Shown: in pieces, positions 1,311 through 23,872 of the stretch
Layout: the number at the start of each line of letters is the position of its first letter
How positions within the stretch are numbered: the stretch's first letter is position 1
NCBI RefSeq assembly: GCF_014196845.1
Contig: NZ_JACIEM010000006.1
Location: forward strand, 62,001 to 126,000
Direction: 5' to 3'
Length of the DNA stretch: 64,000 nucleotides
DNA from: Aurantimonas endophytica
GTDB lineage: Bacteria > Pseudomonadota > Alphaproteobacteria > Rhizobiales > Rhizobiaceae
Made by a program: the position numbers and the translations under genes
Notes under the pieces: generated by a model
The model's database searches: none
What the model saw: the letters and a program-made list of their open reading frames with translations, nothing else
Told to the model about the DNA's origin: nothing

Positions 1311-2330
1311 CTAGCCTCGGATACGCCGGAGCAGGGCCTCGACATGCTCGACCGGAGCGTTCGGCGTGATGCCGTGGCCGAGATTGAACACCAGCGGGCC
1401 GCTGCCGAGGCTTTCGAGGATCCGGTCGACGCCCTCGTCGAGCGCCCGCCCGCCGGCGATCAGCCGCAGCGGGTCGAGATTGCCCTGCACGGCGCCGTCC
1501 TTCTGCAGCTCCTTGGCGAAGGACAGCGGCACGGCCCAGTCGAGCCCCACCCCGTCGACGCCGGTCTTCTGGCGATAGGTGGACAGAAGCGCGCCGGCAC
1601 CCTTGGCAAAGCCGATGATCTTGGCACCGGGCACCGCGGCGCGGACCTTCTCGACCATCCGCGCCACAGGCTTGACCGCATAGGCCTCGAACGAGGCCTC
1701 ATCCAGCACGCCGGCCCAGGAATCGAAGATCTGCACGCAGTCCGCGCCCGCCTGCAACTGCCGGATCAGGTAATCGGCACTCATCTCGGCGAGCATGTAG
1801 AGCAGCGTCTCCATCGCTTCGGGATTTGTGTAGCCGAACAGCCGGGCCGGTGCCTGGTCGGGCGTTCCGTGCCCGGCGATCATGTAGGTCGCCACCGTCC
1901 AGGGCGCGCCGCAGAAGCCGATCAGCGTCGTCTCCTCGGGCAGCTGATCGCGAAGCCGCGCCACCGTCGCGATCACCGGCGCGAGATGCGTGTCGGCATT
2001 GGACGGATCCAGCCGCTCGATCTCGTCGACCCGAAGCGGCGTCAGCTTCGGTCCCTCGCCCTCGACGAAATGCAGGCCGCGATCGAGCGCGTCCGGGATC
2101 ACCAGGATGTCGGAGAACAGGATCGCCGCGTCGAAGCCGAAGCGCCTTATCGGCTGCAGGGTGACCTCTGTCGCCAGATCCGGGTTGTAGCAGAGATCGA
2201 GGAAGCCTCCGGCCTTGGCCCGGGTAGCCCTGTATTCCGGGAGATACCGCCCGGCCTGCCGCATCAGCCATACCGGAGGGGGAGAGACGCTTTCGCCCTC
2301 GAGGACACGGACGAGCTTGCGCTTCTCCAT
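1311..2330 (-). CDS. hemE: uroporphyrinogen decarboxylase HemE
   Basis: Cytosolic enzyme removing four acetate carboxyls from uroporphyrinogen III to give coproporphyrinogen III. The N-terminal signature [13 protein letters not shown] carries the substrate-binding arginines (about residues 24-28). The FSDIL motif supplies the catalytic-site aspartate, and the GFCGAPWT and FNLGHGI blocks are typical. At 339 residues the length is normal. An ATG lies 21 bp upstream (2351), but only the start at 2330 has a ribosome site (GGGAG, 10 nt upstream). The gene reads away from the putative replication origin, exactly as in Caulobacter and Sinorhizobium, where hemE marks the origin. Its promoter must lie in the AT-rich end of that block. 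Confidence 0.93.
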
Positions 2331-2351
2331 CAGGTCTTGGCTCCCATTCAA

Positions 2352-2845
2352 TAAAGAAAAGATTCTCTTAGAGAGAGATTATGATTCTTAGAGTCGGTGA
2401 ATAGTCGGAATTCACACGGCCCGGTAGATGGAGGCGCTGCCGCCATCGTCCACAGCCAATCGCTTCGGGTTTCGGCCAGGGTGGGGATCAGCGGGAGATT
2501 ATCGAGGCGGGAAGGGAGCTTACCGGGCCACTTTGCAACCTGCCGCCTGGGGATGACCGGGGGACGCCCGGATCCTCGTCCACAAATTCCCGCAGGTCCT
2601 GCGCACAGCGCCCGTCGCGTCGCCGATTGGGGACAACCGCACCCTTGTCCCCCGCCCTTCGGTGGACGAACGGGGTTCGGCCCGTAACCCTTCGTTAACC
2701 CACAGGCCGACGAAGAATCATGGGTGCTGTCCCCGTGCCGGGTTGCCGGCGGGGGGCGAATCGAGTCCGGCACTCCGTGGCGTTTGCCGATCCGAAGCGC
2801 TATCAAGCCCGGCGTCCTTAAAGAAATCGTTAAAAGGCGAGCGAA
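2352..2845. other. oriC: putative chromosomal replication origin (oriC)
   Basis: A 494-bp non-coding block between divergent hemE and maf. Seen in the sequence: a strongly AT-rich stretch at 2346-2415 containing the near-repeat GATTCTCTTAGAG/GATTCTTAGAG, a candidate unwinding element. There are six GANTC sites (2361, 2383, 2391, 2716, 2758, 2763). Two copies of TCGTCCACA (2577 and about 2447) differ from the DnaA box TTATCCACA at two positions, and a third near-copy lies inverted at about 2662. There is an 8-bp inverted repeat GGGGACAA/TTGTCCCC (2629-2652) and a CtrA-like box at 2684. Known: origins of several alphaproteobacteria lie beside hemE. Inferred: this is oriC. No perfect DnaA box was found, so the call rests on position plus these elements. 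Confidence 0.72.
2684..2700 (+). promoter_or_regulatory. CtrA-like box in the putative origin
   Basis: GTAA-N7-TTAACC differs from the CtrA consensus TTAA-N7-TTAACC at one base. A second pair, TTAA-N8-TTAA, lies at 2818-2833 and has one extra spacer base. In Caulobacter, CtrA bound at such sites represses origin firing. Function here is inferred. Confidence 0.5.
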
Positions 2846-3445: not shown

Positions 3446-4400
3446 GCAGGACTGGACGCCAGAGCCCTATGTCAGCGGCGCCCAGCGCCCGCGCGGCGAA
3501 GGCTCGATCTTCGATCCCAATCTGGTTCAAGCAGCCACGGACGGGCCCCGCGCCTTCGTCACCGGCTGGCCGGTGTGGCATTCGCGCTCGCCGCTGATCC
3601 ACCGCGCCTGGCTGAAGCAATTCGGCCTGCCGGGCTCCTATGACCGCGTCGGTGTGCCGCCGGAGGAGATCGGCGAATTCTTCCGGACGCTGCGCAGACA
3701 AGGCTTTGTCGGCGGCAATGTCACGCTGCCGCACAAGCTGGCGGCGCTCGAGGCGGTTGCGCGCCGCGATGCGGCGGCGGAGGCCATCGGCGCGGTCAAC
3801 ACGCTGTGGTTCGAGAAATCCGGCCGCCTCGTCGGCGGCAACACCGATGCCTATGGTTTCGCCGCCAATCTCGATGCGCAGCTGCCCGGCTGGGCCGATG
3901 CGGGCACCGCGACCGTGCTCGGCGCCGGCGGTGCGGCGCGGGCGGTGATCTTTGCCCTTCTGAAGGGCGGCATCAAATCGGTGCGGATCGTCAACCGCAC
4001 GGTTGCCCGGGCCGAGGAACTGGCCGAGCGCTTCGGGCCGCTCGTCTCGGCACATGGCGAGGACGAGAAGCCGGCGCTGCTCGCTACCACCGACCTCCTG
4101 GTCAACACGACGCCGATTCCCGCGCCCGATCCGGACGACGAGACGCCGGACTGGTTCGCGCCCAAGCTTCCCGATCTCTCGGCGCTGCCCGATCACGCCA
4201 TGGTCGCCGACATCGTCTACGTGCCGCTCCAGACGCCGATCCTTCAGGCGGCGACCGCCCGGGGTCTGCGGACATCCGACGGGCTCGGCATGCTGCTGCA
4301 CCAGGCGGTACCGGGCTTCGAGCGCTGGTTCGGCCGGCGCCCGACGGTCGATAAGGCGCTGCGCGATGCGATCGTCCGCGACATCGAAAGCGGCGTCTGA
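3438..4400 (+). CDS. aroE: shikimate dehydrogenase AroE
   Basis: NADP-dependent reduction of 3-dehydroshikimate to shikimate in aromatic amino acid synthesis. The substrate-binding SRSPLIH motif is at residues 49-55. The catalytic lysine is in NVTLPHK (K100) and its partner aspartate is in NTDAYGF (D137). The nucleotide loop GAGGAARA is at 162-169. At 320 residues it is about 35 longer than the usual enzyme. The extra sequence is N-terminal ([12 protein letters not shown]...), proline-rich and without clear homology. A later start cannot be excluded, but the overlap with maf favours the long form. Its stop overlaps the coaE start by one base. Confidence 0.92.
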
Positions 4401-5009: not shown

Positions 5010-5612
5010 TTAGACCTCGGACCGCAGCATGCCTTCCGCCAGATGCCGGAACGCCGCAACGGCCTTGCCGAGAACGGCGGGCGGGTCGCCGGCGGCGGCG
5101 ATCCACAGGGCGGCGTTGAGCGCCGCGCCGTTGAGCAGCCTTGCGGCGGCCTCGGCATCCAGGGGCTTCAGCGTTCCCGCGTCGATCAGCGCCTGGATGG
5201 TCTGCGTGGTCGTGGCAAGGCAGGCGTTCTGGTTCGGCCAGCGCGACGGATCGCCGAGCACGGCCGGCCCGTCCAGCAGCATGATGCGCTGGATCTCCGG
5301 CTCCAGCGCCATCTCGATATAGGCGATGCTCTCGGCCAGGAAGCCGAGCCATGGCGATTCAGCGTCCGCCTTCGCCGCGCGCATCCGGTCCAGCATCTCG
5401 GCGTCGATCTGGTCGATGACGGCCTGCAGCAGGCCCTTCTTGTCGCCGAAATTGTGATAGAGCGCGCCGCGCGTCAGGCCGGCCTCGGCCGTCAACTCGT
5501 CCATCGACGCGTCGGCATAGCCCTTGGCGGCGAAAGCGCGCCGCGCGGCGTGGACCAGCTTGCCACGGGTCTCCTCCACCATTTCTGCACGACGTCTTCC
5601 GGCCAAGCTCAC
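5010..5612 (-). CDS. TetR/AcrR family transcriptional regulator
   Basis: DNA-binding repressor of the TetR family. The N-terminal helix-turn-helix is clear (ETRGKLVHAARRAF, then LTRGALYHNFGDKKGLL). The C-terminal ligand domain has no recognisable specificity. The frame is open from an ATG at 5648, but that start would place an operator inside the coding sequence. A GTG at 5612 or an ATG at 5582 fits better; 5612 is given because TetR proteins usually carry 10-15 residues before this helix. It is divergent from a RidA-family gene. The space between them holds three copies of one palindrome, so it very likely represses itself and that gene. The effector is unknown. Confidence 0.85.
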   Translation of the reverse strand: MSLAGRRRAEMVEETRGKLVHAARRAFAAKGYADASMDELTAEAGLTRGALYHNFGDKKGLLQAVIDQIDAEMLDRMRAAKADAESPWLGFLAESIAYIEMALEPEIQRIMLLDGPAVLGDPSRWPNQNACLATTTQTIQALIDAGTLKPLDAEAAARLLNGAALNAALWIAAAGDPPAVLGKAVAAFRHLAEGMLRSEV

Positions 5613-5622
5613 TCTCCGTTCG

Positions 5623-5689
5623 CATACGTGCCGTATGTGTATTGACATACGACGCGTATGCCATCACCTATGCACATACGCGACGTATA
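5623..5689. promoter_or_regulatory. three tandem TetR operator palindromes
   Basis: CATACG-N3-CGTATG occurs at 5623-5637 and 5646-5660, and as CATACG-N3-CGTATA at 5675-5689, with centres 23 and 29 bp apart. The second copy overlaps a TTGACA (5642-5647) that would serve the rightward gene. The third lies in the spacer of a leftward TTGATA-N17-TAGGTG (5693-5665). The arrangement fits repression of both divergent genes by the adjacent TetR protein. Confidence 0.8.
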
Positions 5690-5786
5690 TCAATCCCGCC
5701 CCCAACGACAGTGGGCGGCCTGCGGCGCGACGTACGGTAGACGGATGCGACGTTCGACTGCCGCGAGTTCCCACAACAGGAGTGCC

Positions 5787-6182
5787 ATGATGGCCCAGCG
5801 CGACGCGATCTTCCCTGCCGGACGGCAGGCTCTCTACGACATCAACAAATACTCGGCGGCGATCCGGTCGGGCGACCTGCTGTTCGTCTCCGGCCAGGTC
5901 GGGAGCCGCGAGGACGGTTCGCCCGAGCCGGACTTCCCGGCGCAGGTCCAGCTGGCCTTCGACAATCTCGCCGCCGTGCTGACGGCAGCCGGCGCTACGT
6001 TCGATGACATCGTCGACGTGACGACGTTCCACACCGACCCGGAAAACCAGTTCGCGACCGTCAACGAAGTCCGCGCGACGGTCTTCGGCGAGCCGCCTTA
6101 CCCGAACTGGACCGCGGTGGGCGTCAACTGGCTCTCCGGATTCGATTTCGAGATCAAGGTAATCGCGCGCCTGGCCGGTTGA
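5787..6182 (+). CDS. RidA/YjgF-family protein lacking the catalytic arginine
   Basis: A 131-residue Rid-family protein. RidA itself hydrolyses reactive enamines and imines made by PLP enzymes. The fold signature is clear (LLFVSGQVG, FDNLAAVLTAAGATFDDIVDVTTF, FATVNEVRATVFGEPPYP). The arginine that binds the substrate carboxylate in true RidA falls in a segment that here reads NWTAVGV, with Trp at the aligned place. The protein therefore belongs to a Rid subfamily whose activity is not the classical deaminase, and the name RidA should not be transferred. Start: ATG at 5787 with AGGAG 4 nt upstream; an upstream open frame would begin inside the operators. It is probably controlled by the divergent TetR protein. 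Confidence 0.85.
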   Translation: MMAQRDAIFPAGRQALYDINKYSAAIRSGDLLFVSGQVGSREDGSPEPDFPAQVQLAFDNLAAVLTAAGATFDDIVDVTTFHTDPENQFATVNEVRATVFGEPPYPNWTAVGVNWLSGFDFEIKVIARLAG

Positions 6183-23819: not shown

Positions 23820-23860
23820 GAAAAAGGCCCGCAGCGAGTGATCGCCGCGGGCCTTTTGTT
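23820..23860. terminator. bidirectional terminator between hslV and rpsA
   Basis: AAAGGCCCGC (23823-23832) pairs with GCGGGCCTTT (23847-23856). It is flanked by an A-run on the left and TTTTGTTT on the right, so it ends hslV and the converging rpsA transcript. Confidence 0.88.
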
Positions 23861-23872
23861 TCACGTGGAACC
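23857..23872. promoter_or_regulatory. parS: parS-like centromere site 2
   Basis: TGTTTCACGTGGAACC matches the ParB consensus TGTTTCACGTGAAACA at 14 of 16 positions. It directly follows the hslV terminator, about 21 kb from the putative origin. Function is inferred. Confidence 0.6.

What the first reader, a model, noticed from the sequence alone, without database searches (positions are those of the whole stretch)
2352..2845. Likely chromosomal replication origin between hemE and maf
A 494-bp gene-free block separates leftward hemE-hemJ-gntK from rightward maf-aroE-coaE-dnaQ, the arrangement around known alphaproteobacterial origins. It has an AT-rich end next to hemE, three DnaA-like TCGTCCAC(A/C) elements, six GANTC sites, a CtrA-like box and an inverted repeat. 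The PEP-synthase regulator gene often found beside maf in rhizobia is absent, making this a compact variant.
Basis: partly seen in the sequence, partly recalled or inferred. Interest (0 to 1): 0.75.

Follow-up and report, generated by a model that had tools for sequence, protein, structure and literature searches.

The report
Chromosome replication origin of an Aurantimonas
This short gene-free stretch is very probably where this bacterium starts copying its chromosome; it looks like a normal origin for its group, a little compact because a neighbouring gene is missing in its close relatives too.

Summary
A gene-free block (better bounds 2331-2845, 515 bp) lies between leftward hemE-hemJ-gntK and rightward maf-aroE-coaE, with the listed motifs. 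It has six DnaA-box-like 9-mers and six GANTC sites; 0.39 and 0.67 are expected from 286 kb of its contig. Its AT-rich end is the lowest-GC 60-mer there.

The origin reading is supported. Seven of nine parS-like palindromes in the genome lie within 38 kb, and they cluster likewise in three relatives. In a single-contig sister genome, GC skew and GGGNAGGG polarity switch here. Against it: the own contig shows no skew minimum here, and no DnaA or CtrA box is perfect.

The missing PEP-synthase regulator is a clade trait: all 21 related gaps are too short for it.

Further details: weak DnaA sites (three TCCCCA, two TCCACA), a conserved tandem GANTC near maf, and a GANTC doublet beside the AT-rich end. 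A form of that doublet lies upstream of hemE in 29 of 30 fetched loci of the wider family.

An ordinary origin; the doublet is the one lead worth a test. No experiment was done.

The parts
2331..2845 (.). chromosomal origin region, hemE-maf gap
   Evidence: gene calls; motif density; parS-like cluster; skew switch in sister genome G003
2346..2405 (.). AT-rich end, probable DNA unwinding element (30% GC)
   Evidence: lowest-GC 60-mer of 285,940 on C6:1-286000; unwinding is inferred
2383..2395 (+). conserved GANTC doublet GATTCTTAGAGTC at the edge of the AT-rich end
   Evidence: GATTCTnnGAnTC in 17 of 21 gaps; longer form upstream of hemE in 29 of 30 fetched loci
2396..2404 (-). degenerate DnaA-like site CTATTCACC (CTATCCACC in many relatives)
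   Evidence: 3 mismatches from TTATCCACA in the window itself
2446..2454 (+). DnaA-like box TCGTCCACA
2482..2490 (-). weak DnaA-like box TGATCCCCA (W-box-like TCCCCA)
2548..2556 (-). weak DnaA-like box TCATCCCCA
2576..2584 (+). DnaA-like box TCGTCCACA
2628..2636 (-). central DnaA-like box TTGTCCCCA; TTATCCACA at the matching place in Jiella pelagia, Fulvimarina NAT173 and Aurantimonas 22II-16-19i
2629..2652 (.). inverted repeat of two converging TTGTCCCC
2661..2669 (-). DnaA-like TCGTCCACC (3 mismatches from TTATCCACA)
2684..2698 (+). CtrA-like GTAACCCTTCGTTAA, one mismatch; exact TTAA-N7-TTAA at the matching place in 4 of 21 gaps
2696..2704 (+). DnaA-like TAACCCACA, overlapping the CtrA-like site
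2758..2767 (+). tandem GANTC GAATCGAGTC
   Evidence: tandem in 20 of 21 gaps
2819..2833 (+). second CtrA-like site TAAAGAAATCGTTAA, one mismatch
1311..2330 (-). hemE, flanking gene
   Evidence: TIGR01464, 399 bits
2846..3445 (+). maf-like, flanking gene
   Evidence: NF002690, 310 bits
11318..11333 (+). parS-like palindrome AGTTTCACGTGAAACC (C6:73318)
23857..23872 (+). parS-like palindrome TGTTTCACGTGGAACC (C6:85857)

Best explanation
This is the DnaA-dependent origin (oriC) of the main chromosome. Inferred working: DnaA-ATP fills an array of mostly weak boxes in 2446-2704 cooperatively, melts the AT-rich end at 2346-2405 beside hemE, and the replicative helicase is loaded there for bidirectional copying. 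CtrA-like sites overlapping or near DnaA sites, and GANTC sites that CcrM would methylate, probably time or limit firing. Shown here: position, motif content, conservation, parS-like clustering, and a skew switch in a sister species. Not shown: any protein binding, unwinding or initiation.
For: Motif density unique in 286 kb. Gene order with rho, mnmE and mnmG further left. parS-like places: 7 of 9 in the own genome at C6:26980-85857, block at C6:64331-64845, reversed control 0; 6 of 8 in G003 within 42 kb, 9 of 9 in G005 within 60 kb, 4 of 5 in Jiella pelagia within 28 kb (the last taking G060:C1 as the record of L033). G003, 40 sampled 20-kb stretches: best two-segment skew fit breaks at 4.145 and 1.835 Mb on a 110-kb grid, gap at 4.104 Mb; GGGNAGGG 57:6 forward:reverse on one arm, 4:49 on the other; in 240 contiguous kb the cumulative skew minimum is at 4,090,009, 14 kb away. 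DnaA, GcrA and a RAMA-domain (CcrM-like) protein are encoded. Control: maf without hemE in F. endophytica has no box cluster or GANTC doublet upstream.
Against: The own contig has no skew minimum here: over C6:1-286000 it is at 241,811, and GGGNAGGG is 14:4 to the right (one of the 14 inside the block) but 4:5 to the left (counted from the lists). No perfect DnaA box and no exact CtrA box. One parS-like place is on another contig and one 171 kb away. The skew evidence is from a relative. GANTC excess is modest against shuffles of the block itself (p 0.0265). Two G003 stretches (0.34 and 3.64 Mb) run against their arm's polarity.
Confidence: 0.94

Rival explanations
1. The block is only a divergent regulatory region for hemE and maf, with CcrM/GcrA/CtrA-controlled promoters, and DnaA-like sites that act in transcription.
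For: GANTC and CtrA-like sites lie close to both gene starts; the conserved blocks at both ends could be promoters.
Against: No sigma-70-type promoter match (a crude consensus scan). The skew and polarity switch and the parS-like clustering are left unexplained. The tandem GANTC, the doublet and a box cluster are absent upstream of maf in L035 and L043, where maf stands without hemE.
Confidence: 0.04
2. It is an ancestral origin that is no longer used; initiation now occurs elsewhere, for instance near dnaA (C6:306051, about 242 kb away).
For: Degenerate DnaA boxes in this sub-clade: TTATCCACA in three relatives is TTGTCCCCA here; the skew minimum of C6:1-286000 is at 241,811.
Against: Sister genome G003 has the same box change, yet its skew switches here. 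The block is 80-85% identical in two same-genus genomes. The GRDHTTVLHA stretch of DnaA is identical in 8 of 8 proteins, and weak boxes are normal in Caulobacter (PMC4285127 and PMC4468827, passages).
Confidence: 0.02

Closest known systems
Caulobacter crescentus Cori
   Same: Next to hemE, AT-rich region, several weak DnaA sites including TCCCCA hexamers, CtrA-like sites near DnaA sites (Cori facts from passages of PMC1914354, PMC4285127 and PMC4468827).
   Different: No COG1806/DUF299 gene on the other side (maf instead); no exact CtrA box, against five CtrA sites in Cori; no G-box TGATCCACA.
hemE-type chromosomal gap of Mesorhizobium and other rhizobial relatives
   Same: hemE on one side and maf-aroE downstream; GATTCTnnGAnTC doublet beside an AT-rich end next to hemE.
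   Different: In 6 of 6 Mesorhizobium loci looked at, hemE-maf is 1397-1614 bp and holds a PF03618 gene; here it is 515 bp without one.
Bacillus subtilis basal unwinding system (DnaA boxes plus DnaA-trios)
   Same: Three triplets with central A (GAT TAT GAT, 2377-2385) lie 10 nt from the DnaA-like site at 2396, read by eye against the rule in PMC8287927 (passages).
   Different: The triplets are not kept in close relatives, the site has 3 mismatches, and I judged strand and orientation from memory.

Membership tests
alphaproteobacterial hemE-linked oriC | intergenic block directly upstream of hemE | tested here: met
alphaproteobacterial hemE-linked oriC | COG1806 (PF03618) gene as the other boundary, as in Caulobacter and Rickettsia | tested here: not met
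   no PF03618 match in the draft genome; maf is the neighbour. Not a universal feature: Wolbachia, Ehrlichia and Anaplasma origins have a hemE/COG1253 boundary (PMC1914354, passages)
alphaproteobacterial hemE-linked oriC | cluster of DnaA boxes beyond chance | tested here: met
   6 against 0.39 expected; 5 of T-N-[AG]-TCC-[AC]-CA, at most 1 in any window elsewhere in 286 kb; none is a perfect box
alphaproteobacterial hemE-linked oriC | AT-rich unwinding region | tested here: met
   lowest-GC 60-mer in 286 kb; unwinding itself not tested
alphaproteobacterial hemE-linked oriC | CtrA sites TTAA-N7-TTAA | tested here: inconclusive
   two one-mismatch sites; exact at the matching place in 4 of 21 gaps; the CtrA gene was not searched for
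alphaproteobacterial hemE-linked oriC | IHF site | not tested
   no scan was run
bacterial oriC | strand-composition switch at the site | tested here: met
   met in sister genome G003; not seen on the own contig, whose local curve is shallow
bacterial oriC | parS cluster nearby | tested here: met
bacterial oriC | replication initiates there in cells | not testable with these tools
   needs sequencing reads of growing cells or experiments
basal unwinding system (BUS) | DnaA box followed within 16 bp by three or more (.A.) triplets | tested here: inconclusive
   triplets seen by eye, box weak, triplets not conserved

The most novel reading that the evidence does not exclude
The GANTC doublet GATTCTnnGAnTC at the edge of the unwinding region is a dedicated methylation gate of hemE-type origins in the rhizobial family: full, half or no CcrM methylation of two sites spaced 8 bp would change melting or DnaA/GcrA binding, so that one round of copying blocks the next until CcrM acts. 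The tandem GANTCGANTC at the far end would be its partner in this clade.
Probability: 0.2. Interest if true: 0.6.

Novelty: new member of a known kind. Interest (0 to 1): 0.27.

Why it matters
It places the probable chromosome origin for Aurantimonas and kin; my one search for the genus together with 'replication origin' listed a single, unrelated paper. The GANTC doublet at the hemE edge offers a simple mutational test of whether CcrM methylation acts directly on DnaA-dependent origins in rhizobial bacteria; the passages I saw of PMC11514494 treat methylation mainly at repABC origins. It also gives a short sequence signature for hemE-type origins in part of the family (37 of 151 genomes).

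Tried and rejected
Skew on the own contig: no minimum at the block. A 33-base signature of the hemE end, up to 1 mismatch, over 297 genomes of the order matched only the own genome, so it is clade-specific. The shorter GATTCTNNGANTCNGTKG matched 37 of 151 family genomes, 38 places, reversed control 0; the own genome is not among them because it reads GTGA, and 114 of 151 have no exact match. In the order it matched 5 of 249, all five of the own family; the reversed control matched once. Of the 38 places 30 were fetched. Of the 8 not fetched, G139, G127 and G132 lie within about 400 bp of their genome's PF03618 match, G034's place lies in its hemE-maf gap (L064), and four (G012, G134, G421:C44, G422) were not examined; G134's is on another contig than its PF03618 match, so some are likely chance. 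Compensating change in DnaA: not seen. Basal unwinding system: not conserved. Coding or RNA gene in the block: none found. GcrA's model also rang in one archaeal control genome. Left out of the 21-gap alignment were 18 of the 36 loci: L035 and L043 (no hemE match), L039 (contig end), L040-L042, L045-L047 and L050 (long gap with a PF03618 gene; looked at apart) and L051-L058 (no hemE match); also genome-search loci that repeat genomes already in. The 21 are not independent (A. coralicida and A. manganoxydans are nearly identical).

Full report
Where it lies. The window is contig C6:62001-126000 of a 5.04-Mb, nine-contig genome. Its Maf protein is 95% identical to that of Aurantimonas aggregata, the nearest hit listed (which may leave out the own record). 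The block lies between hemE (minus) and maf (plus); hemJ and gntK follow hemE, and aroE, coaE, dnaQ and, on the other strand, secB follow maf, with a TetR gene and a Rid-family gene between coaE and dnaQ. Further left lie rho, mnmE and mnmG. The hemE start shared by the 21 aligned relatives is at 2330, so the block is 2331-2845.

Motifs against chance. From the density on C6:1-286000 one expects 0.39, 0.67 and 0.021; of 5711 windows of that size only windows that overlap the block reach these values. In 2000 dinucleotide shuffles of the block, boxes never reached 6 and GANTC reached 6 in 2.65%, so the GANTC excess is clear against the contig but modest against the block's own composition. The 60-mer starting at 2346 has 30% GC, the lowest of 285,940. 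A tighter box form, T-N-[AG]-TCC-[AC]-CA, occurs 5 times in the block and at most once in any window elsewhere. CtrA: no exact TTAA-N7-TTAA, two forms with one mismatch; at the place of the first, 4 of 21 gaps have an exact site.

Independent evidence for an origin. A search for the parS consensus (recalled), up to two mismatches, gave 9 palindromic places in the own genome, 7 of them at C6:26980-85857 around the block at C6:64331-64845; one is at C6:235947 and one on C3; the reversed control gave none. In G003 6 of 8, in G005 9 of 9 and in Jiella pelagia 4 of 5 lie within 42, 60 and 28 kb of the homologous gap. On the own contig the skew minimum of C6:1-286000 is at 241,811, not at the block, in a shallow noisy curve. 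I therefore used G003, a same-genus genome in one 4.43-Mb contig. Over 40 stretches of 20 kb, the best two-segment fit of GC skew breaks at 4.145 and 1.835 Mb on a 110-kb grid, and the gap is at 4.104 Mb. GGGNAGGG runs 57 forward to 6 reverse on one arm (19 stretches) and 4 to 49 on the other (21 stretches); the stretches at 0.34 and 3.64 Mb run against their arm. In 240 contiguous kb around the gap the cumulative minimum is at 4,090,009, 14 kb from the gap.

Conservation. The 21 gaps (514-610 bp) of Aurantimonas, Jiella, Fulvimarina, Aureimonas and the unnamed G030 mostly share an AT-rich end next to hemE, a block reading TGATTCTnnGAnTCgGTGgAT....GGaATtCaca, a central TGTGGA box, CCCACAgg, and GAATCGA(G/A)TC (the middle of that output was cut from view). 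The doublet GATTCTnnGAnTC is in 17 of 21, the tandem GANTCGANTC in 20 of 21. The central box is TTATCCACA in three relatives (Jiella pelagia, Fulvimarina NAT173, Aurantimonas 22II-16-19i) but TTGTCCCCA in the window, A. aggregata and G003. The GRDHTTVLHA stretch of DnaA is unchanged (8 of 8; that it is the box-reading part is recalled), so these sites are probably simply weak, like Caulobacter's W-boxes with consensus TCCCCA (PMC4285127 and PMC4468827, passages).

The missing regulator gene. PF03618 has no match in the own draft genome and is present in 92 of 121 sampled genomes of the wider family. The 21 gaps are too short for its 256-position domain, while 6 of 6 Mesorhizobium loci looked at (gaps 1397-1614 bp) and one Hyphomicrobiales MAG (1328 bp) hold a PF03618 gene between hemE and maf. 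The compact layout is thus a clade trait.

A wider signature. GATTCTNNGANTCNGTKG matches 37 of 151 family genomes at 38 places, reversed control 0. Thirty places were fetched; in 29 of these hemE begins 42-176 bp away in divergent orientation, and in one (L139) no hemE match was found in its 1.5-kb flank. In the order 5 of 249 genomes match, all of the same family, with one match of the reversed control. The motif is thus not universal: 114 of 151 family genomes have no exact match. In F. endophytica (L035) and Mesorhizobium loti LU (L043) maf lies without hemE, and neither the doublet, the tandem GANTC nor a box cluster is found upstream of maf: the features go with the hemE-side origin, not with maf.

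Mechanism. Shown: position, motif content, conservation, clustering of parS-like sites, strand switch in a relative. Inferred: DnaA loads on the weak array, melts the AT-rich end beside hemE, and CtrA and CcrM/GcrA tune it. GcrA and a RAMA-domain protein are encoded; CtrA itself was not searched for. [quoted passage not shown]

Verdict. A normal hemE-type origin, confidently placed by sequence evidence, with no experiment behind it. The GANTC doublet is the only part that I would call a lead; searches for GANTC with origin terms listed no paper whose title or the start of whose abstract describes it, but I read only passages of one of the listed papers (PMC11514494), and subscription journals are mostly not in that library.

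Noticed in passing
window 5010-6182: A TetR-type regulator and a Rid-family gene sit between coaE and dnaQ, and the stretch between them (about 5625-5700) holds repeated CATACG/CGTATG half sites that look like the regulator's operator.
   Followed up: no
L035 (Fulvimarina endophytica) and L043 (Mesorhizobium loti LU), about 6001: maf has no hemE match in the 12.6-kb locus and none of the origin features upstream, so maf or the origin has moved; a natural negative control.
   Followed up: partly
L051 (Marinosulfonomonas MAG), 3481-3812: Six DnaA-like 9-mers lie between hemJ and maf although the locus has no hemE match, possibly an origin with another neighbour.
   Followed up: no
G003 contig C1, 40 sampled stretches: GGGNAGGG is strongly strand-biased on both arms (57:6 and 4:49), a good origin/terminus marker in this genus; stretches at 0.34 and 3.64 Mb run the other way, perhaps local inversions.
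   Followed up: partly
window 2628-2636 against the matching places in L032, L033, L034: The central DnaA box is TTATCCACA in three relatives but TTGTCCCCA in this sub-clade, without a change in the GRDHTTVLHA stretch of DnaA.
   Followed up: partly
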